A stretch of DNA of 64,000 nucleotides from Amphibalanus amphitrite (lineage: Eukaryota; Arthropoda; Thecostraca; Balanomorpha; Balanidae), in NCBI RefSeq assembly GCF_019059575.1, contig NW_024882712.1, positions 62,001-126,000 of the forward strand, read 5' to 3'. Positions 1 to 63,616 of this stretch are shown here, piece by piece (within the stretch, counting starts at the first letter, position 1; every line of letters starts with the position of its first letter). The notes under the pieces were generated by a model that had not been told where the DNA came from, searched no databases, and worked only from the letters and a program-made list of their open reading frames with translations. The position numbers and the translations under genes are program-made.

Positions 1-548
1 ACAAGTCCTGAAAGTTAAAGCAAAATCGTATCATATAATTTTGTACAATGAGCGAATGAAAATGTCTGCAAAAACGCCCATTGACTTAACATGGGGAGCG
101 AAAAAAGTTCAACTTCAAACTCGTGCAACTCAAGTTAACGAATTCTGACGGGTATACGGCGCACACTGGCGTGTACCAGAACGTGTTTGCCATAAAATGC
201 GTGGAAGAAAATCACCTCTTCCTTGGCTCGTTTTCCCGCTATTGGCGATCGCGCAAAAAGTGTCCAAAACCCCGTTGACTTAACATGGGGAAAATGGAAT
301 CGCACGTGCCACGTGCCACGAGGTTTTAAGCGAGTAGCGACCGGTGCCATCAGGTAGATCGCCTCCGGGAGCCCATACTCTGAACTTTTTACGGAAATTG
401 AGCGATTCGTCTAGGCCCCTACCAAGTTGCCCCAATTCGCTGCCAGACTTGCAAAACATAGCCCGGAGAACGACCGCTCCGGTTGTTTTTCAATAGAAAA
501 ACACAATTCTAACGAATAGTGTTTGTCTTTTCAAACAACCTGCGGTTA
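1..548 (+). repeat. A0: A block cut by the window edge
   Basis: It holds the second and third A modules and ends at the fixed terminus GGTTA. The next base begins another A block at its GACCATATATAGG start, so no B block lies between these two copies. This is one of the clearest cases of a unit starting far inside the usual sequence. Confidence 0.85.
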
Positions 549-1396
549 AGACCATATATAGGTCTGAGCTCAAATCTCGGTAAAGTCGTGCTTTTTTACC
601 AAATTCCTCAAAAACGGCACAACGTGCAATAACTTTCTATATATCATTGGAAAGAGCATCAAAAGTTGTATAACCTATCAACTTTTCACTTAAATATATC
701 TCAACTGTAAAAAGTTATTAAGCAGCAAAGACGCTCCCATTGACTTTCCATGTTAAAATTTTTCATTTTTAAACGAGCCTTAAAAGAACAAACGAATTTG
801 CACAGCTTAAAGAAGCATAATAACATGTTCTATGGTCTTTTCTCAACAAGTCCTGGAAGTTTAAACAAAATCGTATCATATAATTTTGTACAATGAGCGA
901 ATGAAAAAGTCTCTGCAAAAACGCCCATTGACTTAACATGGGGAGCGAAAAAAGTTCAACTTTGACCTCGTGCAAAGACACGTTACGAAGTTCTGAGGGG
1001 TATACGGCGCACACTAGCGTGTACCCAAACGTGTTTGCCATAAAATGCTGGGAAGAAAACCACCTCTTCCTTGGTTCGTTTTTCCGCCATTGGCGATCGC
1101 GCAAAAAGTGTCCAAAACCCCGTTGACTTAACATGGGGAAAATGGAATCGCACGTGCCACGTGCCACGAGGTTTTAAGCGAGTAGCGACCGGTGCCATCA
1201 GGTAGATCGCCTGCGGGAGCCCATACCCTGAAATTTTTACGAAGATTGAGCGATTTGTTTAGGCCCCTGTCAAGTTGTACTGATTCGCTGGCAGACTTGC
1301 AAAACATAGCCCGGAGAAGGACCGCTCCGGTTGTTTTTCAATAGAAAAACACAATTCTAACGAATAGTGTTTGTCTTTTCAAACAACCTGCGGTTA
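549..1396 (+). repeat. A1: reference A block
   Basis: This block opens with a conserved AT-rich stretch (GACCATATATAGGTCTGAG, then CTCAAATCTCGG). It contains three degenerate ~190-bp modules, each centred on a CCCATTGACTT-like core at about 736, 923 and 1118. The third module ends in tandem CACGTG boxes (CGCACGTGCCACGTGCCACG). The last ~90 bp fold into hairpins and stop at CCTGCGGTTA. Short open frames of 60-132 codons occur on both strands here and in the sister blocks. They overlap each other and match no family I recognise, so I read them as by-products of repeat identity. Confidence 0.9.
1311..1396 (+). repeat. Terminal hairpin region and fixed 3' terminus (reference copy, contains E1)
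   Basis: Hairpin 1 pairs CCGGAG (1311-1316) with CTCCGG (1325-1330). Hairpin 2 pairs 1347-1357 with 1362-1372, an 11-bp stem with one mismatch and a TAAC loop. An outer stem pairs GGTTGTTT (1329-1336) with AAACAACC (1381-1388) and can extend as ACCGC (1321-1325) with GCGGT (1390-1394). The outer stem and hairpin 1 share bases, so they exclude each other. The last 54 bp (1343-1396, E1) recur alone at 16284, 51631 and 51686. All 33 termini in the window end in GGTTA; the next base is C in 26 of 33. Confidence 0.85.
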
Positions 1397-2579
1397 CCAG
1401 CATCTGCGATGCTGGGCTCCGCATCGCGGGACCGCAGGTTGTTTGAGCAAGCACCTTTGTAAACGCAGCAAAAACGCCCGCCGCCAAACGAGAGGATGAG
1501 CCTTGCACGTGCAGACCGGAGTCGGTGTGTTACAAACTGACGTGCACGGCACCCTACTCGCTGATCTATAGCGGTGTGCCAAATTTGAGTGTAATCGGCT
1601 CGGCCATTTTCGAGATCTGGAAGCGTCACCCTGCACGTGCGCACGTGCAAGCTGTGTCCAATTGCATTGTGCATGGGACCCTATTCGCCGGTCCCTAGCG
1701 GTGTACCAAATTCGAGCTCAATCGGCCCAGCCGTTTTCAAGATCTTGAAACGACCCCTCCACGTGCGCACGTGCAGTTGCATCTCAACCGTGACACATGG
1801 AAATACATACTAACTGACTTGTGCACGGCACCCTACTGATCGATCTCTAGATGTTTGCCGAATTTGAGTGCAATCGGTCCAGCCGTTCTTGAAATCTGGA
1901 AGCGTCACCCTGCACGTGCGCACGTGCAAGATGGGTCCAAACTGACTTGCGCACGGCACCCTACTAATCGGTCTCTAGCGGTGTACCAAATTTGAACTCA
2001 ATCGGCCCGGCCGTTCTCGAGATCTGGAAGCGTCACCCTGCACGTGCGCACGTGCAGTTGCACCCCAATCGTGGCACATGGAAATACATACTAAATGACT
2101 GCAACCTACTGATCGGTATCAAGCGTTATGCCAAATTTGAACACAATCGGTCCAGCCGTTCTCGAGATCTGGAAGCGTCACCCTGCACGTGCGCACGTGC
2201 AGTTGCACCCCTACCAAGACACATGGAAATGCATCGCCTGGAAAGTGTCTACCTCCATGCCAAGTTTTAGCGCAATCGGCCCAGTAATTACCGCGAGCTA
2301 TTGCGCTTATTACAAAACAGGCACCTCTTGGCTTTGCACGTGGAACGTGCGTTAGGGGTCACCCATATGCATCGAGAGTAGCACACTATGTGAAAGAAGG
2401 GAAAAAGCTACCCCACACAAAAAAACCGCACGTGTATCAGCCCAGTGGTTGCCGAGATATAAGTCGTACAAAAACGTCCCCACGGCGGCCGGCCGCTATT
2501 TAGCAGTAAAATCGTGTCGCATCCTTCTATTAGAGGTATCCCCGTCACCTGTTCGTATACTGTCTGAGCAAAGGCCATA
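1397..2579 (+). repeat. B1: minisatellite B block, five palindromes
   Basis: After E2 comes a spacer (about 1463-1560), then minisatellite monomers. Each reads roughly CTCTAGCGGTGTGCCAAATT, a TCGGCCCGGCCGTT segment, GAGATCTGGAAGCG and the 18-bp palindrome. The palindromes lie at 1632, 1758 (one mismatch), 1911, 2040 and 2184, so spacing alternates near 126-129 and 144-153 bp. The tail (about 2255-2579) is unique within the unit and holds the 12-bp palindrome GCGGCCGGCCGC and CACCTGTTCGTATACTGTCT. B1, B5 and B8 look nearly identical by eye. Confidence 0.88.
1398..1462 (+). repeat. E2: 5' hairpin element (reference copy)
   Basis: A CAGCATC-TGC-GATGCTG hairpin (1398-1414) is followed by a GC-rich stretch and ACCGCAGGTTGTTTGA (1431-1446). 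That 16-mer is the exact reverse complement of 1379-1394 at the terminus of the preceding copy. E2 opens most B blocks within a few bases of GGTTA, in CAGCATC/GATGCTG or GGCATC/GATGCC versions whose two arms change together. I read it as the 5' end of the repeating element. It is absent where a unit starts further in. Confidence 0.8.
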
Positions 2580-3387
2580 CGTTACGGTCCAAACTCCATA
2601 GTGAGGCGGACATACGAATTTACGAGAGTTTAGCGACGAAATGATTCACTTAATTGTTAAGTAATGGGTACCATTAGGTAGACCATAAATTTTATCTAGC
2701 ATCTCACCGTAGATGCAGTAAAAAGTGCTTTACTTTTCAATGTATGTAAAGACTTGCTCAGCTCAATCAGTTCACTCTGTATTGGCTCAAGCCGTATCAT
2801 GCGAACGCAATACAAACTAGAGCACCGACAGCGCAGCGCTCCCCAACTCACTGCTCGCCCAGTCCACCCGGGCCGCCGCCACGACGGCCCCCCCCCCGCA
2901 AGTAGGCATCCCGCACTGCACCGACAGCCGCGGGCGACCAGCTGACCGGCCAGCTGACCGGCCAGCAGCCGGCGGGCGGCAAGCCACGGATGGCCGACCC
3001 GCCGGCGCGGCGAGGGAGGGGAGGGACGCAGCTGAAAGACCCGACTACATATATATCAAAGAATGATACATTATATGTAATCATCGATGACGCGACATAA
3101 ATCTGCTTTATTGGGTTTAGCGGTGTAGTCTGTGATGCCATCACAATGAAAATAGCCTAGTTTTGTAGAGCATCAAATTCTGATTCCATAACGACTCTCG
3201 CTAGTCCATTTTCAATTGTAAATAAGCCTTTTATTGCGATGCAAAGTCCCGAAATGGTGCCGACGCGACGGCGGCCGGTCCCCCGATGGTACCATACCAT
3301 AGATGGTAAACAGGTTAGTTCACATTCCCGCCGCTATGCGGGCGGCGGCGGCGCCACCTGTCCTCGTGTCCGCCTGACACCGTAACG
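2580..3387 (+). mobile_element. C1: TIR element fixed at the B/A boundary (reference copy)
   Basis: The ends are CGTTACGGT (2580-2588) and ACCGTAACG (3379-3387). A second shared segment, AGGCGGACA, lies just inside each end (2604-2612, and inverted near the right end), so the inverted ends are longer but offset. Units without C join directly as GACCATATATAGG. The flanks are AT repeats, so the target duplication (probably ATA or TA) cannot be settled. The interior has a GC- and CpG-rich half, a poly-C run (10 C here) and a GCGGCGGCGGCG stretch. No transposase is visible. It is probably a non-autonomous DNA transposon that entered one unit and was then amplified with the array. Confidence 0.7.
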
Positions 3388-4226
3388 ATATAGGTCTGAG
3401 CTCAAATCTCGGTAATGTCGTGCTTTTTTACTATATTTCTCAAAAACGGCACCACGTGCAATAAAGTTGTATATATCATTGGAAAGAGCATCAAAAGTTG
3501 TATAACCTATCAACTTTTCACATAAATATATCTCAACTGTAAAAAGTTATTAAGCAGCAAAGACGCTCCCATTGACTTTCCATGTTAAAATTTTTCATTT
3601 TTAAACGAGCCTAAAAGAACAAACGAATTTGCACAGCTTAAAGAAGCATAACAACATGTTCTATGGTCTTTTCTCAACAAGTCCTGGAAGTTTAAACAAA
3701 ATCGTATCATATAATTTGTACAATGAGCGAATGAAAAAGTCTCTGCAAAAATGCCCATTGACTTAACATGGGGAGCGAAAAAAGTTCAACTTTGACCTCG
3801 TGCAAAGTCACGTTACGAAGTTCTGAGGGGTATACGGCGCACACTAGCGTGTACCCAAACGTGTTTGCCATAAAATGCTGGGAAGAAAACCACCTCTTCC
3901 TTGGCTCGTTTTCCCGCTATTCGCGATCGCGCAAAAAGTGTCCAAAACCCCATTGACTTAACATGGGGAAAATGGAATCGCACGTGCCACGTGCCACGAG
4001 GTTTTAAGCGAGTAGCGACCGAAGCCATCAGGTAGATCGCCCCCGGGAGCCCATACCCTGAAATTTTTACGAAAATCGCAATGCACGTTTAGGCCCCGGT
4101 CAAGTTGCCCCAATTCGCGGCCAGACTTGCAAAACATAGCCCGGAGACGGACCGCTCCGGTTGTTTTTCAATAGAAAAACACAATTCTAACGAATAGTGT
4201 TTGTCTTTTCAAACAACCTGCGGTTA
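3388..4226 (+). repeat. A2: A block
   Basis: A complete A block of the subtype ending in GACGGACCG within hairpin 1. Its last 170 bp (4057-4226) are repeated at once in the next entry. Confidence 0.88.
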
Positions 4227-4396
4227 CCTGAAATTTTTACGAAAATCGCAATGCACGTTTAGGCCCCGGTCAAGTTGCCCCAATTCGCGGCCAGACTTGC
4301 AAAACATAGCCCGGAGACGGACCGCTCCGGTTGTTTTTCAATAGAAAAACACAATTCTAACGAATAGTGTTTGTCTTTTCAAACAACCTGCGGTTA
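4227..4396 (+). repeat. A2': 170-bp tandem copy of the A2 end
   Basis: It is an apparently identical copy of 4057-4226, starting at CCTGAAATTTTTACG immediately after GGTTA and ending at a second GGTTA. The joint shares only the short word CCTG. A unit reduced to its last 170 bp explains it simply. Confidence 0.9.
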
Positions 4397-4913
4397 CCCC
4401 AATCGTGGCACATGGAAATACATACTAAATGACTGCAACCTACTGATCGGTATCAAGCGTTATGCCAAATTTGAACACAATCGGTCCAGCCGTTCTCGAG
4501 ATCTGGAAGCGTCACCCTGCACGTGCGCACGTGCAGTTGCACCCCTACCAAGACACATGGAAATGCATCGCCTGGAAAGTGTCTACCTCCATGCCAAGTT
4601 TTAGCGCAATCGGCCCAGTAATTACCGCGAGCTATTGCGCTTATTACAAAACAGGCACCTCTTGGCTTTGCACGTGGAACGTGCGTTAGGGGTCACCCAT
4701 ATGCATCGAGAGTAGCACACTATGTGAAAGAAGGGAAAAAGCTACCCCACACAAAAAAACCGCACGTGTATCAGCCCAGTGGTTGCCGAGATATAAGTCG
4801 TACAAAAACGTCCCCACGGCGGCCGGCCGCTATTTAGCAGTAAAATCGTGTCGCATCCTTCTATTAGAGGTATCCCCGTCACCTGTTCGTATACTGTCTG
4901 AGCAAAGGCCATA
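4397..4913 (+). repeat. B2: B block starting inside the minisatellite
   Basis: It lacks E2, the spacer and most monomers. It begins at CCCCAATCGTGGCACATGG inside a monomer and keeps one palindrome (about 4519) and a full tail. Confidence 0.85.
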
Positions 4914-5731
4914 CGTTACGGTCCAAACTCCATAGTGAGGCGGACATACGAATTTACGAGAGTTTAGCGACGAAATGATTCACTTAATTGTTAAGTAATG
5001 GGTACCATTAGGTAGACCATAAATTTTATCTAGCATCTCACCGTAGATGCAGTAAAAAGTGCTTTACTTTTCAATGTATGTAAAGACTTGCTCAGCTCAA
5101 TCAGTTCACTCTGTATTGGCTCAAGCCGTATCATGCGAACGCAATACAAACTAGAGCACCGACAGCGCAGCGCTCCCCAACTCACTGCTCGCCCAGTCCA
5201 CCCGGGCCGCCGCCACGACGGCCCCCCCCCCCCCCCCCCCCGCAAGTAGGCATCCCGTCCCGCACTGCACCGACAGCCGCGGGCGACCAGCTGACCGGCC
5301 AGCTGACCGGCCAGCAGCCGGCGGGCGGCAAGCCACGGATGGCCGACCCGCCGGCGCGGCGAGGGAGGGGAGGGACGCAGCTGAAAGACCCGACTACATA
5401 TATATCAAAGAATGATACATTATATGTAATCATCGATGACGCGACATAAATCTGCTTTATTGGGTTTAGCGGTGTAGTCTGTGATGCCATCACAATGAAA
5501 ATAGCCTAGTTTTGTAGAGCATCAAATTCTGATTCCATAACGACTCTCGCTAGTCCATTTTCAATTGTAAATAAGCCTTTTATTGCGATGCAAAGTCCCG
5601 AAATGGTGCCGACGGCGGCCGGTCCCCCGATGGTACCATACCATAGATGGTAAACAGGTTAGTTCACATTCCCGCCGCTATGCGGGCGGCGGCGGCGCCA
5701 CCTGTCCTCGTGTCCGCCTGACACCGTAACG
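4914..5731 (+). mobile_element. C2: C element with a 20-C tract
   Basis: Full length with both TIRs. The poly-C run before GCAAGTAGGC is 20 bases, the longest of the ten copies. A small CCCGT duplication follows it. The TATA-like site is degenerate (TATGTAAA). Confidence 0.7.
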
Positions 5732-6572
5732 ATATAGGTCTGAGCTCAAATCTCGGTAATGTCGTGCTTTTTTACTATATTTCTCAAAAACGGCACCACG
5801 TGCAATAAAGTTGTATATATCATTGGAAAGAGCATCAAAAGTTGTATAACCTATCAACTTTTCACATAAATATATCTCAACTGTAAAAAGTTATTAAGCA
5901 GCAAAGACGCTCCCATTGACTTTCCATGTTAAAATTTTTCATTTTTAAACGAGCCTAAAAAGAACAAACGAATTTGCACAGCTTAAAGAAGCATAACAAC
6001 ATGTTCTATGGTCTTTTCTCAACAAGTCCTGGAAGTTTAAACAAAATCGTATCATATAATTTTGTACAATGAGCGAATGAAAAAGTCTCTGCAAAAATGC
6101 CCATTGACTTAACATGGGGAGCGAAAAAAGTTCAACTTTGACCTCGTGCAAAGTCACGTTACGAAGTTCTGAGGGGTATACGGCGCACACTAGCGTGTAC
6201 CCAAACGTGTTTGCCATAAAATGCTGGGAAGAAAACCACCTCTTCCTTGGCTCGTTTTCCCGCTATTCGCGATCGCGCAAAAAGTGTCCAAAACCCCATT
6301 GACTTAACATGGGGAAAATGGAATCGCACGTGCCACGTGCCACGAGGTTTTAAGCGAGTAGCGACCGGTGCCAACAGGTAGATCGCCTGCGGGAGCCCAT
6401 ACACTGAAATTTTTAAGAAAATCGAGCCACAAGTTTAGGCCTGACCCAAGTTGCCCCAATTCGCGGCCAGACATGCAAAACATAGCCCGGAGACGGACCG
6501 CTCCGGTTGTTTTTCAATAGAAAAACACAATTCTAACGAATAGTGTTTGTCTTTTCAAACAACCTGCGGTTA
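5732..6572 (+). repeat. A3: A block
   Basis: A complete A block. It is followed by a 5'-shortened E2 (CTCCGCATCGCGGGACCGC). Confidence 0.88.
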
Positions 6573-6792
6573 CTCCGCATCGCGGGACCGCAGGTTGTTT
6601 GAGCAAGCACCTCTGTACCGCCCGCCGCAAAACGCAAAACCGCAAAACTCGCAAAACGCACGCTCAAAACGCAACGCAAAAGCCGCAAAAAAAAAACAAT
6701 CGCCCGCAGGCTCAAAACCGCAGAAAAAACGCAAAAAAGCCGCAAAAACGCCCGTCCGCCGCAAAACGCAAACACCGCAAAAAACGCAAATA
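6573..6792 (+). repeat. B3: E2 remnant plus short T-poor block
   Basis: A partial E2 and CACCTCTGTA are followed by ~175 bp of CCGCAAAACGC-type sequence, a short copy of the blocks at 48885 and 61236. The minisatellite and tail are missing: the block runs straight into the interior of C3. Confidence 0.75.
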
Positions 6793-7533
6793 GATTCACT
6801 TAATTGTTAAGTAATGGGTACCATTAGGTAGACCGACCATAAATTTTATCTAGCATCTCACCGTAGATGCAGTAAAAAGTGCTTTACTTTTCAATGCATA
6901 TAAAGACTTGCTCAGCTCAATCAGTTCACTCTGTATTGGCTCAAGCCGTATCATGCGAACGCAATACAAACTAGAGCACCGACCCGACAGCGCAGCGCTC
7001 CCCAACTCACTGCTCGCCCAGTCCACCCGGGCCGCCGCCACGACGGCCCCCCGCAAGTAGGCATCCCGCACTGCACCGACAGCCGCGGGCGACCAGCTGA
7101 CCGGCCAGCTGACCGGCCAGCAGCCGGCGGGCGGCAAGCCGCGGATGGCCGACCCGCCGGCGCGGCGAGGGAGGGGAGGGACGCAGCTGAAAGACCCGAC
7201 TACGTATATATCAAAGAAACATTATATGTAATCATCGATGACGCGACATAAATCTGCTTTATTGGGGTTAGCGGTGTAGTCTGTGATGCCATCACAATGA
7301 AAATAGCCTAGTTTTGTAGAGCATCAAATTCTGCTTCCATAACGACTCTCGCTAGTCCATTTTCAATTGTAAATAAGCCTTTTATTGCGATGCAAAGTCC
7401 CGAAATCGTGCCGACGGCGGCCGGTCCCCCGATGGTACCATATCATAGACGGTAAACAGGTTAGTTCACATTCCCGCCGCTATGCGGGCGGCGGCGGCGC
7501 CACCTGTCCTCGTGTCCGCCTGACGCCGTAACG
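6793..7533 (+). mobile_element. C3: C element lacking its left end
   Basis: It starts at GATTCACTTAATTG, so the left TIR and about the first 70 bp are gone. It has a six-C tract, TGCATATAAAG at the TATA position, and a right end of ACGCCGTAACG. Confidence 0.7.
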
Positions 7534-8374
7534 ATATAGGTCTGAGCTCAAATCTCGGTAATGTCGTGCTTTTTTACTAAATTTCTCAAAAACGGCACAA
7601 CGTGCAATAACGCTCTGTATATCATTGGAAAGAGCATCAAAAGTTGTATAACCTATCAACTTTTCACTTAAATATATCTCAACTGTAAAAAGTTATTAAG
7701 CAGCAAAGACGCTCCCATTCACTTTCCATGTTAAAATTTTTCATTTTTAAAGAAGCCTAAAGACAACAAACGAATTTGCACAGCTTAAAGAAGCATAACA
7801 ACATGTTCTATGGTCTTTTCTCAACAAGTCCTGAAAGTTTAAACAAAATCGTATCATATAATTTTGTACAATGAGCGAATGAAAAAGTCTCGGCAAAAAC
7901 GCCCATTGACTTAACATGGGGAGCGAAAAAAGTTCAACTTTGACCTCGTGCAAAGACACGTTACGAAGTTCTGAGGGGTATACGGCGCACACTAGCGTGT
8001 ACCCAAACGTGTTTGCCATAAAATGCTGGGAAGAAAACCACATCTTCCTTGGCTCGTTTTCCCGCCATTGGCGATCGCGCAAAAAGTGTCCAAAACCCCG
8101 TTGACTTAACATGGGGAAAATGGAATCGCACGTGCCACGTGCCACGAGGTTTTAAGCGAGTAGCGACCGAAGCCATCAGGTAGATCGCCTGCGGGAGCCC
8201 ATACCCTGAAATTTTTACGAAGATTGAGCGATTCGTTTAGGCCCCGGTCAAGTTGCCCCAATTCGCGGCCAGACTTGCAAAACATAGCCCGGAGACGGAC
8301 CGCTCCGGTTGTTTTTCAATAGAAAAACACAATTCTAACGAATAGTGTTTGTCTTTTCAAACAACCTGCGGTTA
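7534..8374 (+). repeat. A4: A block
   Basis: A complete block. The following E2 is the GGCATC/GATGCC version preceded by four extra bases (CACGC). Confidence 0.88.
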
Positions 8375-8514
8375 CACGCGGCATCTGCGATGCCGGGCTC
8401 CGCATCGCGGGACCGCAGGTTGTTTGAGCAAGCACCTTTGTAAACGCAGCAAAAACGCCCTCCACCAAACGAGAGGATGAGCCTTGCACGTGCAGACCGC
8501 AGTCGGTGTGCTAC
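8375..8514 (+). repeat. B4: B block stub
   Basis: E2 and the spacer up to GTCGGTGTGCTAC are present. The array then stops and unrelated sequence follows; no minisatellite monomers remain. Confidence 0.8.
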
Positions 8515-9506
8515 CCTGCTGGGGGGAGGGGGCGTGTAACTCGGCTCCTCGGCCAATTAACGATACGGGAAAGCGGTGTTCGGAAGAGAGTAAAAAAACA
8601 ACGACGAAATCCACAAGTCACGTTTTTCGTCAGGTCAAAGATCATGTCACCAGAGGTCATTGAAGTTAAATAACGCGCCTTTTAGGGCGACAAAGGAAGG
8701 AGCGGGAGAGTGAGCCATGATACGTGGTAAGAGTGGCTACAGACTTCAGACTTTATGCAGACTTAACATTGAGGTATTATATATGCAACTAAATGACACA
8801 CATGGTGTTTGTTCTAACCTTCTCAACAGAAAGTGAACGTGTCAGGACAGCACCCCTTGGTGACCATTATACTCAAGGGGTGTAGGAACTGATTCCCCAG
8901 GGGTGAAGCGATAGAAGCAAAAACATGAGTCACAAGTTCCCTCCTGCAGTGTATGGAGTACCTATATTCACATTACCAATAATATGATGCACAACAGGCC
9001 ATAGAAAACCAGTGAATGTTGAATTGTACCCCAATTTCAATATCAATATGGCACTTGGCAATAACAGTAAAACACACTGTTTTTTATGTTAAATCAACAG
9101 AGAAAACTCCTGAACCTAAAAAATGATCAGAATGTATAATAAGGATAACAGTATAAATAAAAAACGACGACATCGGCACCTATCATCGCCGTTCCACATT
9201 CACCACTCCCCATTCCACGCACAGATTGTTTACGCCTTGGTTTACCCCGTGTTCGCAGTCTCCCTGACGACGGAGATTCTTTACGCCCACCGACCAATCA
9301 CGTTCAAGATCAGCGGGGCTTGGCCGCAGTTCTCGGACGCCATTGGCCAGATTTAGCAGGACCTTCGTCGTCAGGAAAACTGTGAACACGGTGTTACATA
9401 TTTCGTCATGGTAACAAAAGCGCCAGAATTGACTACCAGAATTGGATCCGAAGGTCAAATGGGTCACGTGACTGTCAAGTTCGGATGGACAACACCTGGA
9501 AAGTGG
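8515..9506. other. Unrecognised ~1-kb non-array segment
   Basis: The segment replaces the rest of B4 and about the first 75 bp of A5. It opens with a G-run (GGGGGGAGGGGGCG). I found no matching inverted ends, no target duplication, no long open frame on either strand (longest about 110 codons) and no element I can name. It could be host DNA captured when two array ends joined, or the unique part of a variant unit. Confidence 0.5.
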
Positions 9507-10292
9507 AAAACCGCACAACGTACAATAACGCTCTATATATCATTGGAAAGAGCATCAAAAATTGTATATCCTATCAACTTTTCACTTGAATATGTCTTCA
9601 AGGTACAAAGTTATTAAGCACCAAAGACGCTCCCATTGACTTTCCATGTTAAAATTTTTCATTTTTAAAGAAGCCTAAAGACAACAAACGAATTTGCACA
9701 GCTTAAAGAAGCATAACAACATGTTCTATGGTCTTTTCTCAACAAGTCCTGAAAGTTTAAACAAAATCGTATCATATAATTTTGTACAATGAGCGAATGA
9801 AAAAGTCTCTGCAAAAACGCCCATTGACTTAACATGGGGAGCGAAAAAAGTTCAACTTTGACCTCGTGCAAAGACACGTTACGAAGTTCTGAGGGGTATA
9901 CGGCGCACACTAGCGTGTACCTGAACGTGTTTGCCATAAAATGCTGGGAAGAAAACCACCTCCTTCTCGGCTCGTTTTTCCGCTATTGGCGATCGCGCAA
10001 AAAGTGTCCAAAACCCCGTTGACTTAACATGGGGAAAATGGAATCGCACGTGCCACGTGCCACGAGGTTTTAAGCGAGTAGCGACCGGTGCCATCAGGTA
10101 GATCGCCTGCGGGAGCCCATACCCTGAAATTTTTACGAAGATTGAGCGATTCGTTTAGGCCCCGGTCAAGATGTCTCGATTCGCGGCCAGACTTGCAAAA
10201 CATAGCCCGGAGACGGACCGCTCCGGTTGTTTTTCAATAGAAAAACACAATTCTAACGAATAGTGTTTGTCTTTTCAAACAACCTGCGGTTA
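9507..10292 (+). repeat. A5: A block lacking its first ~75 bp
   Basis: It picks up at AAAACCGCACAACG inside the first module and continues to the terminus. It shares the CTTGAATATGTCTTCAAGG variant with A8, A11 and A17. Confidence 0.85.
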
Positions 10293-27366: not shown

Positions 27367-27401
27367 TTAAGCCGCTTCACTCTTATGGTTAGAACTGAAG
27401 C

Positions 27402-51684: not shown

Positions 51685-51685
51685 T

Positions 51686-52608: not shown

Positions 52609-53454
52609 GACCATATATAGGTCTGAGCTCAAATCTCGATAGAGTCGTGCTTTTTTACTAAATTTCTCAAAAACGGCACAACGTGCAATAACGCTCTATA
52701 TATCATTGGAAAGAGCATCAAAAGTTGTATATCCTATCAACTTTTCGCTTAAATATATCTTCAACGTACAAAGTTATTAAGCACCAAAGACGCCCCCATT
52801 GACTTTCCATGTTAAAAATTTTCATTTTTAAACGAGCTTAAAAAGTACAAACGAATTCTGACAGCTTAACGAAGCATAACAACATGTTCTATGGTCTCTT
52901 CTCAACAGGTCCTGAAAGTTTAAACAAAATCGTATCATATAATTTTGTACAATGAGCGAATGAAAATGTCTCTGCAAAAACGCCTATTGACTTAACATGG
53001 GGAGCGAAAAAAGTTCGACTTCAAAGTCGTACTACAAGAAATATCGACTTCTTACGGGTATACGGTACACAGGGGCGTGTACCTGAACGTGTCGGCCATA
53101 AAATGGTGTGCAGCAAATCATACCTTGACCTGCGATTTTTCCCGCTATTCGCGATCGCGCAAAAAGTGTCCAAAACCCCGTTGACTTAACATGGGGAAAA
53201 TGGAATCGCACGTGCCACGCGCAAAAGAATTCTGAGCGAATAGCGACCGGTGCCATCAGGTAGATCGCCCCCGGGAGCCCATACCCTGAACTTTTTACGA
53301 AGATTGATCGATTCGTCTAGGCCCCGCTCAAGTTGCCCCAATTCGCGGCCAGACTTGCAAAACATAGCCCGGAGACAGACCGCTCCGGTTGTTTTTCAAT
53401 AGAAAAACACAATTCTAACGAATAGTGTTTGTCTTTTCAAACAACCTGCGGTTA
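52609..53454 (+). repeat. A20: A block
   Basis: A complete block with the GTCGTACTACAAGAAATATCG variant also seen in A18, and one CACGTG box instead of two. Confidence 0.86.
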
Positions 53455-54470
53455 CCAGCATCTGCGATGCTGGGCTCCGCATCGCGGTACCGCAGGTTGT
53501 TTGAGCAAGCACCTTTGTAAACGCAGCAAAAACGCCCGCCGCCAAACGAGAGGATGAGCCTTGCACGTGCAGTCTGGAGTCGGTGTGCTACGGACTGACG
53601 TGCACGGCACCCTATTCGCCGGTCTATAGCGGTGTGCCAAATTTGAGTGCAATCGACCCGGCCGTTTTCGAGATCTGGAAGCGACACCCTGCACGTGCGC
53701 ACGTGCAGCCTGGGCCCCAATTGACTTGTGCACGGCACTCTATTCGCCCGTTGCTAGCGATGTACCAAATTTAATCTGAATCGGCCCAGCCGTTTCCAAG
53801 ATCGGGAAACGACACCTGTACGTGCGCACGTGCAGCTGCACCCCAACCTTAACACATGGAAATACACACTAACTGACTTGTGCACGGCACCCTACTAACC
53901 AGTCTCTAGTGGTATGCCAAATTTGAGTGCAATCGACCCGGCCGTTTTCGAGATCTGGTAGCGTCGTCCTGCACGTGCGCACGTGCAAACTGGGTCCCAT
54001 CTGACTTGTGCACGGCACCCTACTCACCGATCCCTAACGGTGTGCCAACTTTGATCACAATCGGCCCAGCCGTTCTCGAGATCTGGAAGCGTCACCCTGC
54101 CCGTGTGCACGTGCAGCGGCACCCCAACCGTGACACATGGAAATGCATTGCGCGGCAGGTGCCTACAACCATGCCAAGTATCAGCGCAATCGGTACACTA
54201 ACTACAGAGTTATTAGACTTGTAACCGAACTGACACCTCTTCGTTTTGCACGTGGCACGTGCATTAGGGGTCACCCATACGCATCGAGAACAGCACACTA
54301 CGTTTGGGAAAGGAAGAAGCTATCCCACACAAAAGACCGCGAGTGAATCGGTCCAGTGGTTGCAGAGATATAAGGTTTGTAAAGGCACCCCACAGGCGGC
54401 CTACTGCTAATATTTAGCAATAATCAGTGTCGCATCCGCACACGGGAGGTATCGCCGTCACCTGTTCGTA
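53455..54470 (+). repeat. B21: B block, four palindromes
   Basis: E2 with GCATCGCGGTACCGC. Palindromes lie near 53690, 53818, 53970 and 54100. Second-subtype tail. Confidence 0.84.
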
Positions 54471-55327
54471 TACTCTAATGTGGTTGGGTTCAAGTCACAG
54501 TCGAGTCCTGCTTTTTTACAGCTTTTCTTAAAAACGGCACATCGTGCTGTGACGTTCTATACATTGTTGGAAAGAGCACCGAAAGTTGTATATTTTATTA
54601 ACTTTTCACTTTGATATATCTGCAACGTAAAAAGTTATTAAGCAACAAAGACGCTCCCGTTGACTTTCCATGTTAAAAATTTTAAATTTCAAATGAACTT
54701 TATAAGAAAAAATGAGTTTTGCCAGCTTAACAAAGCATAACGGCATGTACTATGCTCTTTCCTCTACAAGATATAAGAGTTTGGGCGAAATCCATCTCTA
54801 AAATTTTGTACAAAGATCGAATGAAAATGTCTCTGCAAAGTCTCGGCATCGCCGTCCATTGACTTAACATGGGACACAGCAAAATTCCAACTTTGACCTC
54901 GTGCAAAGACACGTTCCGAGATTCTGAGGGGTATACAGCGCACACTTGCGTGTACCCAAACGTGTTTGCCATAAAATGCTGGGAAGAAAACCACCTCTTC
55001 CTTGGCTCGTTTTCCCGCCATTCGCGATCGCGCAAAAAGTGTCCAAAACCCCGTTGACTTAACATGGGGAAAATGGAATCGCACGTGCCACGCGCAAAAG
55101 ACTTCTTAGCGAGTACCGACTGGTGCCATCAGGTAGATCGCCTGCGGGAGCCCATACCCTGAAATTTTTACGAAGATTGAGCGATTCGTTTAGGCCCCAC
55201 CCAAGTTGCCCCAATCTCAGGCCAACTTTGCAAAACATACCCCGGACAACGACCGCTCCGGTTGTTTTTCAATAGAAAAACACAATTCTAACGAATAGTG
55301 TTTGTCTTTTCAAACAACCTGCGGTTA
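54471..55327 (+). repeat. A21: divergent A* block
   Basis: GTTCAAGTC at 54488-54496. The third module ends GCGCAAAAGACTTCTTAGC, unlike A15. The terminus is normal. Confidence 0.84.
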
Positions 55328-56349
55328 GACCGGCATCTGCGATGCCGGGCTCCGCATCGCGGGACCGCAGGTTGTTTGAGCAAGCACCTTTGTAAACGCA
55401 GCAAAAACGCCCGCCACCAAACGAGAGGATGAGCCTTGCACGTGCAGACCGGAGTCGGTGTGCTACGGACTGACGTGCACGGCACCCTATTCGTCGGTCT
55501 ATAGCGGTGTGCCAAATTTGAGTGCAATCGACCCGGCCGTTTTCGAGATCTGGAAGCGACACCCTGCACGTGCGCACGTCCAGCCTAGGCCCCAATTGAC
55601 TTGTGCACGGCACTCTATTCGCCGGTTTCTAGCGGTGTACCAAATTGGAGCTCAATCGGCCCCGTCAATTTCAAGATCTGGAAGCGACCCCTACACGTGC
55701 GCTCGTGGAGCTGCACCCCAACCGTGGCACATGAAAATACATACTAACTGACTTGTGAACGGCACCCTACTAACCAGTCTCTAGTGGTATGCCAAATTTG
55801 AGTGCAATCGACCCGGCCGTTTTCGAGATCTGGAAGCGTCAGCCTGCACGTGCGCACGTGCAAACTGGGTCCCATCTGACTTGTGCACGGCACCCTACTC
55901 GCCGATCCCTAACGGTGTGCCAACTTTGATCACAATCGGCCCAGCCGTTCTCGAGATCTGGAAGCGTCACCCTGCACGTGTGCACGTGCAGCGGCACCCC
56001 AACCGTGACGCATGGAAATGCACTGCGCGGCAGGTGCCTACAACCATGCCAAGTATCAGCGCAATCGGCAAACTAACTACAGAGTTATTAGACTTGTTAC
56101 CTAACTGACACCTCTTCGTTTTGCACGTGGCACGTGCATTAGGGGTCACCCATACGCATCAAGAACAGCACACTACGTGTAAGAAAGGAAGAAGCTATCC
56201 CACACAAAAGACCGCGAGTGAATCGGTCCAGTGGTTGCAGAGATATAAGGTTTGTAAAGGCATCCCACAGGCGGCCTACTGCTAATATTTAGCAAATAAT
56301 CAGTGTCGCATCCGCACACGGGAGGTATCGCCGTCACCTGTTCGTATCC
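55328..56349 (+). repeat. B22: B block, four palindromes
   Basis: GGCATC-type E2 after GACC. One palindrome is decayed (near 55695, GCGCTCGTGGA). Second-subtype tail. Close to B21 in its right half and to B10 in its left. Confidence 0.84.
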
Positions 56350-57203
56350 TCTAATGTGGTTGGGTTCAAGTCACAGTCGAGCCCTGATTTTTTACAGCTT
56401 TTCTTAAAAACGGCACATCGTGCAGTGACGTTCTATACATTGTTGGAAAGAGCATCGAAAGTTGTATATTTTATTAACTTTTCACTTTGATATATCTGCA
56501 ACGTAAAAAGTTATTAAGCAACAAAGACGCTCCCATTGACTTTCCATGTTAAAAATTTTAAATTTCAAATTAACTTTATAAGAAAAAATGAGTTCTGCCA
56601 GCTTAACGAAGCATAACGGCATGTACTATGCTCTTTCCTCTACAAGATATAAGAGTTTGGGCGAAATCTATCTCTAAAATTTTGTACAAAGATCGAATGA
56701 AAATGTCTCTGCAAAGTCTCGACATCGCCGTCCATTGACTTAACATGGGACACAGCAAAATTCCAACTTTGACCTCGTGCAAAGACACGTTCCGAGATTC
56801 TGAGGGGTATACAGCGCACACTAGCGTGTACCTGAACGTGTTTGCCATAAAATGCTGGGAAGAAAACCACCTCTTCCTTGGCTAGTTTTCCCGCCATTGG
56901 CGATCGCGCAAAATGTGTCCAAAACCCCATTGACTTAACACGGGGAAAATGGAATCGCACGTGCCACGTGCCACGAGGTTTTAAGCGAGTAGCGACCGGT
57001 GCCATAAGGTAGATCGCCTCCGGGAGCCCATACACTGAACTTTTTACGAAGATTGTACATTTCGTCTAGGCCCCTACCAAGTTGCCCCAATTCGCTGCCA
57101 GACTTGCAAAACATAGCCCGGAGAACGACCGCTCCGGTTGTTTTTCAATAGAAAAACACAATTCTAACGAATAGTGTTTGTCTTTTCAAACAACCTGCGG
57201 TTA
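56350..57203 (+). repeat. A22: divergent A* block
   Basis: Close to A15 and A21, with GTTCAAGTC at 56364-56372. It is followed by a 67-bp filler. Confidence 0.84.
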
Positions 57204-58357
57204 CGTGTATGTTTGTTTGATGCTCACGCATGCTTGTGAACCAATTGCTTGTGAAATGCATGCTTGTATACCAGCATCTGCGATGCTGGGCTCCGCATCG
57301 CGGGACCGCAGGTTGTTTGAGCAAGCACCTCTGTAACGCCGCAAAAACGCCCGCCGCCAAACCAGAGGATGAGCCTTGCACGTGCAGACCGGAGCGGGTG
57401 TGCCACGAACTGATGTGCACTGCACTCTATGCAGCCTGGGTCCCAATTGACTTGTGCATGGCACTCTATTCGCCGGTTTCTAGCGATGTACCAAATTTAA
57501 TCTGAATCGCCCCACCCGTTTCCAATAATCGACCCGGCCGTTTTCGAGATCTGGAAGCGACACCCTGCACGTGCGCACGTGCAAAATGGTCCCATCTGAC
57601 TTTTGCACGGCAACCTATTCGCTGGTCTCTAGCGGTGTACCAAATTTGAGCTCAATCGGCCCGGCCGTTCTCGAGATCTGAAAGTGTCACCCTGCACGTG
57701 CGCACGTGCAGCTGCATCCCAACCGTGACACATGAGAATACATACTAACTGACTTGCGCACGGCACCCTACTGATCGGTGTCTAAAACTGTGCCAAATTT
57801 GAATGCAATCGGCCCGGCCGTTCCTGAGATCTGGAAGCGTCACCCTGCACGTGCGCACGTGCAACCTGGGACCCAACTGATCTATGCAATGCACCCTACT
57901 ACGCGGTCTCTGGCGGTGTGCAAAATTTGAACTCAATCGGCCCGGCCGGTCACGAGATCTGGAAGCGTCACCCTGCACGTGCGCACGTGCAGCGGCACCC
58001 CTACCGTGGCACATGAAAATGGATCGCCTGGTAGGTGACTACCTACATGCCAAGTTTCAGCGCAATCGGCCCAGTAATTACCGAGTTATTGCACTTATTA
58101 CAAAACTGACACCTCTCCGTATTACACGTGTCACGTGCAGTAGGGGTTACCCGCATGCATCGTCCACAGTAAAATACTTCTAAGAAGGGTATACGCTACC
58201 CCACACAAAAAACCGCAAGTGTATTGGTCCAGTGGCTGCGGAGATATAAGTCGTACAAAAACGTCCTCAAGGCGGCCGGCTGCTAATGTTAAGTATTAAA
58301 TCGCATCCTTCTATGGGAGGTATCCCCGTCACCTGTTCGTATACTGTCTGAGCCAAG
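57204..58357 (+). repeat. B23: B block with a 67-bp filler before E2, four palindromes
   Basis: The filler (57204-57270) is built of GCATGCTTGTG-like words that resemble the filler in B24. E2 then starts as usual. Palindromes lie near 57566, 57696, 57847 and 57976. The right part matches B18. Confidence 0.84.
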
Positions 58358-59202
58358 GCCATATATAGGTCTGAGCTCAAATCTCGGTAATGTCGTGCTT
58401 TTTTACCAAATTCCTCGAAAACGGCACAACGTGCAATAACGCTCTATATATCATTGGAAAGAGCATCAAAAGTTGTATATCCTATCAACTTTTCACTTAA
58501 ATATATGTTCAACGTACAAAGTTATTAAGCACCAAAGACGCTCCCATTGACTTTCCATGTTAACAATTTTCAATTTTAAACGAGCTTAAAAAGAACAAAC
58601 GAATTCTGACAGCTTAACAAAGCATAACAACATGTTCTATGGTCGTTTCTCAACAAGTCCTGAAAGTTTAAACAAAATCGTATCATATAATTTTGTACAA
58701 TGAACAAATGAAAATGTCTCTGCAAAAACGCCCATTGACTTAACATGGGGAGCGAAAAAAGTTCAACTTCAAACTCGTGCATCTCAAGTTAACGAATTCT
58801 GACGGGTATACGGCGCACACGGGCGTGTACCTGAACGTGTCGGTCATAAAATGGTGGGCAGCAAGCCATACCTTGTCCCGCGATTTTTTCCGCTATTCCC
58901 GATCGCGCAAAAAGTGTCCAAAATCCCGTTGACTTAACATGGGGAAAATGGAATCGCACGTGCCACGTGCCACGAGGTTTTAAGCGAGTAGCGACCGGTG
59001 CCATCAGGTAGATCGCCTGCGGGAGCCCATACCCTGAAATTTTTACGAAGATTGAGCGATTCGTTTAGGAGAGGCTCAACTTGTCTCGATTCGCGGCCAG
59101 ACTTGCAAAACATAGCCCGGAGAAGGACCGCTCCGGTTGTTTTTCAATAGAAAAACACAATTCTAACGAATAGTGTTTGTCTTTTCAAACAACCTGCGGT
59201 TA
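58358..59202 (+). repeat. A23: A block, second subtype
   Basis: A complete block with the GAGAGGCTCAACTTG ending of A16, followed by a 38-bp filler. Confidence 0.86.
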
Positions 59203-60265
59203 TGCTTGTGTAATGTGTGTGTACTTGCAGTTTGGCATACCCAGCATCTGCGATGCTGGGCTCCGCATCGCGGGACCGCAGGTTGTTTGAGCAAGCACCT
59301 CTGTAACGTCGCAAAAGCGCCCGCCGCCAAACGAGAGGATGAGCCTTGCACGTGCAGACCGGAATGGGTGTGCTACGAAATGACGTGCACTGCACTCTGC
59401 TAACCGGTCTCTAGCGGTGTGCCAAATTTGAGTGCAATCGACCCGGCCGTTTTCGAGATCTGGAAGCGACACCCTGCACGTGCGCACGTGCAAAATGGTC
59501 CCATCTGACTTTTGCACGTCACCCTATTCGCCGGTCTCTAGCGGTGTACCAAATTTGAGCTCAATCGGCCCGGCCGTTCTCGAGATCTGAAAGTGTCACC
59601 CTGCACGTGCGCACGTGCAGCTGCATCCCAACCGTGACCCATGAAAATACATACTAACTGACTTGCGCACGGCACCCTACTGATCGGTCTCTAAAGGTGT
59701 GCCAATTTTGAATGCAATCGGCCCGGCCGTTCCTGAGATCTGGAAGCGTCACCCTGCACGTGCGCACGTGCAACCTGGGACCCAACTGATCTGTGCAAGG
59801 CACCCTACTACGCGGTCTCTGACGGTGTGCCAAATTTGAACTCAATCGGCCCGGCCGGTCACGAGATCTGGAAGCGTCACCCTGCACGTGCGCACGTGCA
59901 GCGGCACCCCTACCGTGGCACATGAAAATGGATCGCCTGGTAGGTGACTACCTGCATGCCAAGTTTCAGCGCAATTGGCCCAGTAATTACCGAGTTATTG
60001 CACTTATTACAAAACTGACACCTGTCCGTATTACACGTGTCACGTGCAGTAGGGGTCACTCGCATGCATCGTCCATAGTAAAATACTTCTAAGAAGGGTA
60101 TACGCTACCCCACACAAAAAACCGCAAGTGTATTGGTCCAGTGGCTGCGGAGATATAAGTCGTACAAAAACGTCCCCACGGCGGCCGGCTGCTAATGTTT
60201 AGTATTAAATCGCATCCTTCAATGGGAGGTATCCATGTCACCTGTTCGTATACTGTCTGAGCCAA
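59203..60265 (+). repeat. B24: B block with a 38-bp filler before E2, four palindromes
   Basis: The filler TGCTTGTGTAATGTGTGTG... (59203-59240) shares words with the B23 filler. Palindromes lie near 59475, 59605, 59755 and 59883. Third-subtype tail. Confidence 0.84.
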
Positions 60266-61112
60266 GACCATATATAGGTCTGAGCTCAAATCTCGGTAAA
60301 GTCGTGCTTTTTTACCAAATTCCTCAAAAACGGCACAACGTGCAATAACTTTCTATATATCATTGGAAAGAGCATCAAAAGTTGTATAACCTATCAACTT
60401 TTCACTTAAATATATCTCAACTGTAAAAAGTTATTAAGCAGCAAAGACGCTCCCATTGACTTTCCATGTTAAAATTTTTCATTTTTAAACGAGCCTAAAA
60501 AGAACAAACGAATTTGCACAGCTTAAAGAAGCATAATAACATGTTCTATGGTCTTTTCTCAACAAGTCCTGGAAGTTTAAACAAAATCGTATCATATAAT
60601 TTTGTACAATGAGCGAATGAAAAAGTCTCTGCAAAAACGCCCATTGACTTAACATGGGGAGCGAAAAAAGTTCAACTTTGACCTCGTGCAAAGACACGTT
60701 ACGAAGTTCTGAGGGGTATACGGCGCACACTAGCGTGTACCCAAACGTGTTTGCCATAAAATGCTGGGAAGAAAACCACCTCTTCCTTGGCTCGTTTTTC
60801 CGCCATTGGCGATCGCGCAAAAAGTGTCCAAAACCCCGTTGACTTAACATGGGTAAAATGGAATCGCACGTGCCACGTGCCACGAGGTTTTAAGCGAGTA
60901 GCGACCGGTGCCATCAGGTAGATCGCCTGCGGGAGCCCATACCCTGAAATTTTTACGAAGATTGAGCGATTTGTTTAGGCCCCTGTCAAGTTGTACTGAT
61001 TCGCTGCCAGACTTGCAAAACATAGCCCGGAGAAGGACCGCTCCGGTTGTTTTTCAATAGAAAAACACAATTCTAACGAATAGTGTTTGTCTTTTCAAAC
61101 AACCTGCGGTTA
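60266..61112 (+). repeat. A24: A block
   Basis: A complete block, closely matching A1 by eye, although 60 kb apart. Confidence 0.88.
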
Positions 61113-62913
61113 CCAGCATCTGCGATGCTGGGCTCCGCATCGCGGGACCGCAGGTTGTTTGAGCAAGCACCTTTGTAAACAGCATCTGCGATGCCGGGCT
61201 CCGCATCGCGGGACCGCAGGTTGTTTGAGCAAGCACCTATGTACCGCCCGCCGCAAAACGCAAAACCGCAAAACTCGCAAAACGCACGCTCAAAACGCAA
61301 CGCAAAAGCCGCAAAAAAAACAATCGCCCGCAGGCACAAAACCGCAGAAAAAACGCAAAAAAAGCCGCAAAAACGCCCGTCCGCCGCAAAACGCAAACAC
61401 CGCAAAAAAACGCAAATACCACCGCCACAAAAAATCGCCCGCATCGCCCGCAGCCAAATGCAAAACGCCGCGAAACGCGGCCGCCCGCCTAAAACCGCAA
61501 CACCGCCAATAACGCCCGGCCGCCGGCGACCGCAAAACCCCGCAAAAAACGGCCGCCCGCCGCAAACTACAAAACGCCGCAAAAAAAACGGCCGCCCGCC
61601 GCAAACCGCCGCTAAAACGGCCGCCCGCCGCCAAACGCAAACACCGCAAAACACCCGCATCGCCCGCCCGCCCGCCGCCAAACACAAAAAACGCAAAAAC
61701 GCAAACACCGCCGCAAAAAAACGCCCGCAACGCACGCCCGCCCGCCGCCAACCGGAAAACGCCGCAAAAAACGGCCGCCCGCCGCCAAACAAAAACACCG
61801 CAAAAAACGCAAAAACGGCCGCCCGCCGCCAAACGCAAACACCGAAAAAACACAAACACCGCCGCAAAAACGCCCGCCGTAGGCAAAACGCAAACACTGA
61901 CGCATTAAGACAAATATGGCGCCCTGCGGCAAATGTGGTGCATTCATATCTACCGTTTAAGCAGCCATCGCTTAATTACAGCGCATCCTAATCGTCCAAT
62001 TTTCGACAAAATAACGCACATATTGCACTTTGTGGCAAAAATGGCGCTTTGAGACAAACGTGGCGCACTGCAACAAACGTGCCGCATTCGTTCATGTCGC
62101 TTAACAATTCATCAACCCACCAAATTCTAGTCCAATCGGACTTAAACTGACAAAGTTATGTACATTTGAATATTTCACTATAAAATATATCCGCAACGGA
62201 GGTGCCCAAATTTGCACGTGTGCCACGTGATCGCCGGTGGTGTAAGCAGGACTTGTCTCCTCACTGATTGCACCATTTCAGTATTCCTGGCTTGTGCTGT
62301 TTTCGGTCTCTAGCGGTATACCAAATTTGAACTAAATCGGCCAGGCCGGTCACGAGATCTGGAAGCGTCACCCTGCACGTGCGCACGTGCAGTTGCACCC
62401 CAATCGTGGCACATGGAAATGCATACTAAATGACTGCAAACTACTGATCGGTATCAAGCGTTATGCCAAATTTGAACACAATCGGTCCAGCCGTTCTCGA
62501 GATCTGGAAGCGTCACCCTGCACGTGCGCACGTGCAGTTGCACCCCTACCAAGACACATGGAAATGCATCGCCTGGAAAGTGTCTACCTCCATGCCAAGT
62601 TTTAGCGCAATCGGCCCAGTAATTACCGCGAGATATTGCGCTTATTACAAAACAGGCACCTCTTGGCTTTGCACGTGGAACGTGCGTTAGGGGTCACCCA
62701 TATGCATCGAGAGTAGCACACTATGTGAAAGAAGGGAAAAAGCTACCCCACACAAAAAACCGCACGTGTATCAGCCCAGTGGTTGCCGAGATATAAGTCG
62801 TACAAAAACGTCCCCACGGCGGCCGGCCGCTATTTAGCAGTAAAATCGTGTCGCATCCGTCTATGGGAGGTATCCCCGTCACCTGTTCGTATACTGTCTG
62901 AGCAAAGGCCATA
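61113..62913 (+). repeat. B25: B block with tandem E2 and T-poor insert
   Basis: Two E2 copies lie in tandem (61114-61178, then 61179-61242). The first is the CAGCATC version; the second has CAGCATC paired with GATGCCG. They are followed by the T-poor block, the G-type tail (61891-62308), two palindromes near 62375 and 62518, and a full tail. Confidence 0.83.
61236..61890 (+). repeat. T-poor low-complexity block, second copy
   Basis: Nearly the same as 48885-49530 with small differences in run lengths. Open frames of 274 codons (minus, 61073-61897) and 266 codons (plus, 61191-61991) cross it on opposite strands. Both follow from the lack of T and are not evidence of genes. Confidence 0.85.
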
Positions 62914-63616
62914 CGTTACGGTCCAAACTCCATAGTGAGGCGGACATACGAATTTACGAGAGTTCAGCGACGAAATGATTCACTTAATTGTTATGTAATG
63001 GGTACCATTAGGTAGACCATAAATTTTATCTAGCATCTCACCGTAGATGCAGTAAAAAGTGCTTTACTTTTCAATGTATATAAAGACTTGCTCAGCTCAA
63101 TCAGTTCACTCTGTATTGGCTCAAGCCGTATCATGCGAACGCAATACAAACTAGAGCACCGACAGCGCAGCGCTCCCCAACTCACTGCTCGCCCAGTCCT
63201 CCCGGGCCGCCGCCACGACGGCCCCCCGCAAGTAGGCATCCCGCACTGCACCGACAGCCGCGGGCGACCAGCTGACCGGCCAGCTGACCGGCCAGCAGCC
63301 GGCGGGCGGCAAGCCGCGGATGGCCGACCCGCCGGCGCGGCGAGGGAGGGGAGGGACGCAGCTGAAAGACCCGACTACATATATATCAAAGAAACATTAT
63401 ATGTAATCATCGATGACGCGACATAAATCTGCTTTATTGGGGTTAGCGGTGTAGTCTGTGATGCCATCACAATGAAAATAGCCTAGTTTTGTAGAGCATC
63501 AAATTCTGATTCCATAACGACTCTCGCTAGTCCATTTTCAATTGTAAATAAGCCTTTTATAAATTGCGATGCAAAGTCCCGAAATGGTGCCGACGGCGGC
63601 CGGTCCCCCGATGGTA
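62914..63616 (+). mobile_element. C25: C element interrupted at its right end
   Basis: Left TIR, TATATAAA at 63077 and a six-C tract. A small AAAT insertion lies near 63560. It is cut at the central TA of ATGGTACCAT, the same base pair as in C10. Confidence 0.7.

What the first reader, a model, noticed from the sequence alone, without database searches (positions are those of the whole stretch)
1..63616. Array of units with one fixed 3' terminus and many different 5' starts
All 33 copies of the terminus end at the same base (CCTGCGGTTA). The following sequence starts at E2 in about half the cases and otherwise inside the spacer, minisatellite, A modules, E1, or unrelated blocks. Ordinary satellites made by unequal exchange keep a constant register; this array does not. 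Fixed 3' ends with ragged 5' starts are the signature of 5'-truncated retroposons laid head to tail (as in HeT-A/TART telomere arrays), or of an element whose replication always stops at one end.
Basis: partly seen in the sequence, partly recalled or inferred. Interest (0 to 1): 0.82.

Follow-up and report, generated by a model that had tools for sequence, protein, structure and literature searches.

The report
Helitron-type arrays with one fixed end
This DNA array is a pile-up of non-coding rolling-circle jumping elements that share the same starting end but stop at many different places, which may show how such elements turn into satellite-like arrays.

Summary
In detail: 33 of 33 termini end at the same base and the next unit starts at many different places. 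The ragged ends are variable 3' ends: RTS, truncated RTS, bypass into flank, or early stop. The window's genome (807.5 Mb) holds 3,435 LTS, 1,722 RTS (stricter pattern) and 1,187 LTS-RTS junctions, plus solitary copies. Adjacent units are hardly more alike than distant ones, unlike a satellite homogenised by unequal exchange. I infer that copies are added in front of resident LTSs, and that LTS-only units of 36-63 nt record aborted firings in place. No transposase gene with these ends was found, in a partial search, and no enzymology was tested. Tandem Helitron arrays are known; this is a new variant.

The parts
1..64000 (-). Head-to-tail array of non-autonomous rolling-circle elements; each unit reads LTS to 3' end on the minus strand. 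Further copies lie beyond the window on the same contig (G000:C1215).
4157..4226 (-). LTS (5' terminal 70 nt) of a representative full-length unit. The 33 LTS first bases lie at 548, 1396, 4226, 4396, 6572, 8374, 10292, 13121, 15842, 16231, 16337, 18858, 19162, 21993, 24461, 31644, 33506, 35399, 37193, 38623, 40496, 41690, 43498, 47088, 48829, 51237, 51684, 51739, 53454, 55327, 57203, 59202, 61112
   Evidence: DNA fold -14.2 kcal/mol, z -3.87, 1 of 200 shuffles as good
4209..4226 (-). 5' end TA plus 16-nt 5'-ATIR ACCGCAGGTTGTTTGA
1397..4226 (-). Representative full-length unit (2,830 nt) with LTS, body, 128-bp minisatellite, 3'-ATIR and RTS
1397..1415 (-).
   Evidence: variable pair A-T or G-C
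1431..1446 (-). 3'-ATIR, exact reverse complement of the 16-nt 5'-ATIR, 34 nt from the 3' end
4057..4396 (-). Exact tandem duplication of the first 170 nt of the downstream unit; inner junction at an LTS end
15454..16231 (-). Exact tandem duplication of the first 389 nt of the downstream unit; inner junction at an LTS end
51630..51739 (-). Two exact LTS copies of 55 nt; inner junction at an LTS end
16177..16389 (-). Exact duplication of 55-nt LTS plus 51 nt of neighbouring minisatellite; inner junction is not at an LTS end
57204..57270 (-). 67 nt beyond the RTS of unit 57204-59202, begins TATACAAG: read here as RTS bypass into flank
59203..59239 (-). 37 nt beyond the RTS of unit 59203-61112, begins TATGCCAA: read here as RTS bypass into flank
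33507..35399 (-). Unit with a variant LTS and a 1.6-kb unrelated block
40497..41690 (-). Unit with a variant LTS followed only by unrelated sequence, no RTS

Best explanation
The array is made of non-autonomous rolling-circle transposons with Helitron2-type ends, read on the minus strand. Shown: a fixed 5' end with 16-nt ATIR and hairpin, a 3' ATIR followed by a terminal hairpin, variable 3' ends, solitary copies, and a strong bias for G just before the LTS. Inferred: a transposase supplied in trans nicks G^TAACC at the LTS. Synthesis runs toward the RTS and ends at the RTS hairpin, a little beyond it, or anywhere earlier. The product is joined at G^TA sites, and the LTS of a resident copy is a favoured site. 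Each event thus adds a unit with the same 5' end and its own 3' end in front of the previous one. Very short LTS-only units are aborted firings in place.
For: Anatomy: LTS fold z -3.87, RTS hairpins z -5.37 and -4.78; ATIR arrangement as described for Helitron2 (PMC3627910 passages). Variable RTS pair: 47 A-T and 10 G-C among 57 junctions matched between two listings (58 typed of the 100 listed of 1,187; 1 unmatched; one side limited to C/T by the pattern). Polarity: 33 of 33 units align from position 1; LTS 3,435 against RTS 1,722, with a stricter RTS pattern, and 33 against 15 full RTS in the window by my sorting. Base before the LTS is G in 2,283 of 3,242 exact LTS, canonical RTS ends included. 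Solitary copies. RTS abuts a ~68-nt LTS of a related subfamily at two loci (L086, L088). Bypass. Of 14 exact tandem duplications, 10 are one 12-bp internal repeat; of the other 4, 3 have the inner junction at an LTS end, chance about 0.0005-0.0016 each. LTS-LTS spacings of 33-63 nt (limits of the pattern): 94 genome-wide; of 77 whose letters were shown I read 62 as LTS prefixes and 15 as composites. Neighbours average 90.4% identity against 89.4% overall, permutation P 0.053. Helitron Rep domains: 148 hits, a lower bound; PF14214 in two ORFs. Helraiser needs its LTS but not strictly its RTS, and makes truncations and read-throughs (PMC4778049, PMC5876387 passages).
Against: No Rep/helicase gene was found with these ends, in a partial search: 1.5 kb on each side of 30 Rep loci, and 3 kb starting about 1.5 kb upstream at 12 loci (only 3 of these 12 also had the nearest 1.5 kb read), with further stretches for two. 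No empty site was found for the one copy tested. The G^TA bias differs from the TTTT or TT targets printed for Helitron2 and Helentrons. Most full-length units are not closest to their neighbour, and the 304-nt unit at 18859 is closer to a distant unit (98.1% against 92.5%), so in-place duplication explains a minority. The G bias could be a target preference or a termination preference. The assembly was not checked against reads.
Confidence: 0.77

Rival explanations
1. Break-induced, template-switching repair at nicks or breaks in the LTS makes the units: a host polymerase copies from the break and switches template, without true transposition into the array.
For: Composite mini-units join a stretch of LTS to copies of neighbouring flank (C7 edge: 24 nt of LTS plus a flank copy; C9 edge: 32 nt of LTS plus a copy of the last 10 nt of the flank); one 18-nt filler; exact copies of the neighbouring unit at 4057 and 15454.
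Against: Full-length units with a proper RTS and closest matches far away, and solitary copies elsewhere, suggest transposition. The fixed LTS junction still asks for a site-specific nick.
Confidence: 0.3
2. Ordinary satellite evolving by unequal exchange, with chimeric units.
For: Some units are near-identical (u04, u07, u08, u13 at 98.6-99.6%) and adjacent similarity is slightly raised, P 0.053.
Against: One near-invariant junction with many partners in 33 of 33 units; solitary copies and many separate clusters in one genome.
Confidence: 0.05
3. 5'-truncated retroposons joined head to tail as in HeT-A/TART.
For: One fixed and one ragged end; one solitary copy lies in a (TTAGG)n tract.
Against: The fixed end carries a hairpin and asymmetric inverted repeats, the other end has its own conserved hairpin terminus in 13 of 33 units, no poly(A) run at the ends shown, telomere junction at one locus only.
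Confidence: 0.02
4. Concatemers of a circular intermediate inserted as blocks, as proposed for plant centromeric Helitrons after loss of the terminator.
For: Head-to-tail RTS-LTS junctions as expected of circles; three units of 2,829-2,831 nt, not adjacent to each other.
Against: A concatemer would repeat one 3' end and one sequence; here neighbouring units often differ in 3' end and in subfamily sequence.
Confidence: 0.15

Closest known systems
Helitron2 / Helentron elements and HINE/DINE-1 non-autonomous derivatives (PMC3627910, PMC4067079; passages seen)
   Same: 5' T, 5'-ATIR within 2 nt of the end, 5' hairpin, 3'-ATIR upstream of a 3' hairpin, central tandem repeats, no coding capacity
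   Different: G^TA bias instead of TTTT^T/C or TT; large tandem arrays; no partner protein linked
Fusarium FoHeli Helitron2 with multiple 5' termini (PMC5148889; passages seen)
   Same: short duplicated 5' ends in front of one element, self-insertion proposed
   Different: here LTS number in the thousands, with LTS-only units of 36-63 nt (63 is the limit of my search)
Plant centromeric Helitron arrays (Xiong, Dooner and Du 2016; known to me only through PMC12628747 and PMC5148889 passages)
   Same: tandem Helitrons with many 5' ends and fewer 3' ends
   Different: many of those arrays are described as truncated elements with a single 3' end; here units have their own 3' ends and many keep the RTS; ends here are Helitron2-type
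Helraiser and bat Helitrons (PMC4778049, PMC5876387; passages seen)
   Same: LTS essential, RTS hairpin acts as terminator, truncation and bypass, insertion next to another Helitron with 5' end against 3' end
   Different: Helitron1 ends (TC/CTAG, A^T target), experimental system

Membership tests
Helitron2 (termini) | 5'-ATIR 0-2 nt from a 5' end that starts with T | tested here: met
   TA then ACCGCAGGTTGTTTGA; 16 nt against the printed 8-15
Helitron2 (termini) | 5' hairpin that uses the 5'-ATIR | tested here: met
   GGTTGTTT of the ATIR pairs with downstream AAAACAACC in the predicted fold, z -3.87
Helitron2 (termini) | 3'-ATIR subterminal, immediately upstream of a 3' hairpin | tested here: met
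   exact 16-nt match, 34 nt from the 3' end (printed 20-30), hairpin pair kept in 57 of 57 matched junctions
Helitron2 (termini) | no target site duplication (usual, with printed exceptions) | tested here: inconclusive
   none seen at C5:738596-741630; the TTAGG-tract copy is uninformative; no empty site found
Helitron2 / Helentron | insertion after TTTT or within TT (reported, not universal: FoHeli differs) | tested here: not met
   left base G in 7 of 11 solitary or edge LTS (T 2, A 2); right flank starts with T in 8 of 9 and TA in 7 of 9 RTS read, with the end placed after the hairpin by me
Helitron2 / Helentron | mobilised by a RepHel of the Helitron2 clade sharing the ends | tested here: inconclusive
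   148 Rep-domain hits in the genome; no shared ends in the limited flanks read; clade not placed
Telomeric retroposon (HeT-A/TART type) | poly(A) or telomere-joined 3' end, RT-derived | tested here: not met
   telomere junction at one locus only; no poly(A) run at the ends shown; conserved hairpin at the other end
Helitron1 | 5'-TC, CTRR-3', A^T target | tested here: not met
   5' TAACC, 3' hairpin at the very end, G before the LTS

The most novel reading that the evidence does not exclude
The LTS works as an origin that can re-fire in place: each nick at G^TAACC copies a variable stretch and rejoins in front of the old LTS, so a rolling-circle transposase builds a satellite directly at the donor locus, with LTS-only units of 36-63 nt as footprints of firings that aborted in the 5' hairpin.
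Probability: 0.3. Interest if true: 0.75.

Novelty: new variant of a known kind. Interest (0 to 1): 0.52.

Why it matters
How rolling-circle transposons end, misfire and turn into satellites is mostly inferred from a few systems. Here one genome keeps more than 3,400 starts beside 1,722 canonical ends, with solitary copies, bypassed ends, truncated ends and minimal units, so start fidelity, termination signals and self-targeting could be measured directly from sequence.

Tried and rejected
Retroposon/HeT-A reading: rejected on end anatomy and because a telomere junction was found at one locus only, listed as three overlapping matches. Unequal exchange: rejected on register and weak neighbour similarity (one search stopped with an error after its first table, 160 nt). 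Autonomous partner: the flanks read at Rep loci did not show the ends, but the search is partial: 1.5 kb each side of 30 loci, and 3 kb blocks beginning about 1.5 kb upstream at 12 loci, 9 of which had no nearer flank read. The minisatellite (about 73% over 853 nt upstream of C433) and a block at 33679-34127 (79% over 455 nt, upstream of C919) looked like links, but no LTS was found further up. Empty site for the C5 copy: only its own two flanks and short partial matches came back. Coding capacity: ORFs up to 300 aa, the longest in repeat-rich sequence. Neighbour rank: against simple local copying, most full-length units match distant units best. Literature: the listings showed me no title or abstract start on Helitron2 arrays with LTS-only units; I saw passages of six papers, and nothing of Xiong 2016 itself.
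Full report
Observation. The 10-mer terminus occurs 33 times on the + strand with no inexact copy at one mismatch. Cutting there and reading the minus strand, 33 of 33 units align to a full-length reference unit from its position 1 (the first is cut by the window start), and then stop at very different places. In 24 units compared (7 shorter than 800 nt and 2 with a variant terminus dropped) the first 60 nt average 1.00 per 20-nt block, rounded, while the later blocks average about 0.92 (my mean of the table). At least one single-base difference in the 60 nt is visible (terminus 48829).

Anatomy on the minus strand. The unit begins T-A-ACCGCAGGTTGTTTGA. Part of this pairs with downstream bases in a predicted 5' hairpin around an inner hairpin (-14.2 kcal/mol, z -3.87). 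The canonical other end is TCAAACAACCTGCGGT (the exact 16-nt inverted repeat) and then, 34 nt from the end at its outer base, a stretch that closes with the terminal hairpin CCAGCATC-GCA-GATGCTGG (z -5.37 and -4.78 for two versions with one more pair). The variable pair of that hairpin is A-T in 47 and G-C in 10 of the 57 junctions that could be matched between two listings (58 rows typed of the 100 listed of 1,187; 1 unmatched), with no mismatch; one side was limited to C/T by the pattern. Two other RTSs (C1:84317, C1:1534693) show G against T there, a wobble. With two pair types only, this may be few events. The arrangement is the one printed for Helitron2 (PMC3627910, passages) and close to Helentron/HINE elements (PMC4067079, passages).

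What varies. The ends opposite the LTS are: canonical RTS 13, RTS cut inside its hairpin 3, RTS followed by 67 or 37 nt of other sequence 2, points inside the element 14, unrelated sequence 1, of 33 (my sorting). Both bypass tails start with TA. A replicative element with a strict start and a loose terminator would look like this; Helraiser requires its LTS but not strictly its RTS, and makes truncations and read-throughs (PMC4778049 and PMC5876387, passages).

Genome-wide. Counts: LTS 3,435, RTS 1,722, LTS within 12 nt of an RTS 1,187, reversed controls 0. The LTS pattern allowed one mismatch in 21 bases and the RTS pattern was exact over 28, so the two-to-one ratio overstates the excess by an unknown amount. 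The first 100 listed places fall in separate clusters, on long contigs both in the middle and nearer an end. A solitary full-length copy sits inside an interstitial (TTAGG)n tract at C1:81663-84347. A copy at C5:738596-741630 has two LTS and one RTS. Telomere repeats close to an LTS were found at this one place only.

Junction preference. The base before the LTS is G in 2,283 of 3,242 exact LTS. Canonical RTS ends supply many of these, since the RTS ends in G. Taking 1,187 junctions, of which 90 of the first 100 listed have G, roughly 59% of the remaining LTS are preceded by G; this is an estimate because the patterns differ. At solitary or edge LTS (edges judged from the order of the listing) the base is G in 7 of 11 (T 2, A 2). 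Right of nine RTS ends the next base is T in 8 and TA in 7; duplicated RTSs are not counted and I placed the end after the hairpin, which is a choice. At L086 and L088 the RTS abuts a ~68-nt LTS of a related subfamily. I infer that G^TA, best of all a resident LTS, is the joining site.

How the array grows. A scan for exact tandem duplications found 14; 10 are one 12-bp repeat inside the units. Of the other four, three (55, 170, 389) have the inner junction exactly at an LTS end and one (106) does not. Units 4227-4396 and 15843-16231 are exact copies of the start of the unit just downstream over the compared 160 nt and over the full duplication. LTS-LTS spacings of 33-63 nt, the limits of the pattern, number 94 genome-wide. 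For 77 of them letters were shown; I read 62 as plain LTS prefixes of 36-63 nt (3 with small differences) and 15 as composites; 28 of 77 are 51 nt long, just past the inner hairpin. Shared descent of many 51-nt units by array duplication is likely, so these are not 28 events. Against local copying as the main route: most full-length units match distant units best, the 304-nt unit at 18859 is closer to a distant unit than to its neighbour, and neighbours average 90.4% against 89.4% overall (P 0.053). I therefore favour repeated insertion of separate copies at resident LTSs, with in-place aborted firings as a minority.

What is missing. No transposase gene with these ends was found. The genome has 148 Rep-domain hits, a lower bound, two of them confirmed as Helitron_like_N in long open frames. 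The search for shared ends was partial: 1.5 kb on each side of 30 Rep loci, and 3 kb starting about 1.5 kb upstream at 12 loci, of which 3 also had the nearest 1.5 kb read, with 3.5 and 1.8 kb more at two. No empty site was found for the one copy tested. Membership in Helitron2 thus rests on the ends alone, and the G^TA bias differs from printed targets.

Verdict. The finding is real and its polarity should be reversed. Tandem Helitron arrays are known (plants, bats and others, as cited in PMC12628747, PMC5148889 and PMC5876387 passages). What looks unusual here is the scale, the separate 3' ends of the units, and the ladder of minimal LTS units.

Noticed in passing
window 26203-30705: A 4.5-kb block with inverted ends CAGGGACCCGCAGTTGCT / AGCAACTGCGGGTCCCTG, flanked by TA on both sides: looks like a TIR DNA transposon inserted in one unit.
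   Followed up: partly
window 61114-61243; L035 4675-4760: RTS present twice about 66 nt apart at the 3' end of a unit; a second, partial case in L035 ends right after the 3'-ATIR.
   Followed up: no
G000:C2217:7200-33503, C173, C2314: Helitron Rep domains stand in a row at about 11-13 kb spacing, so autonomous elements may also form arrays.
   Followed up: no
L081 1332-2295, L074 1723-2013: The CACGTGCGCACGTGC minisatellite of the units recurs, diverged, upstream of two Rep genes in the same orientation.
   Followed up: partly
L089 (G000:C7:1980380-1980600): At one array edge a 24-nt LTS is followed by a copy of the flank, as if flank and LTS were duplicated together.
   Followed up: partly
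window 48888-49520 and 61251-61900: Some units carry a degenerate CCGCAAAA/GCGGCGGGCGG repeat region before the RTS instead of the 128-bp minisatellite.
   Followed up: no
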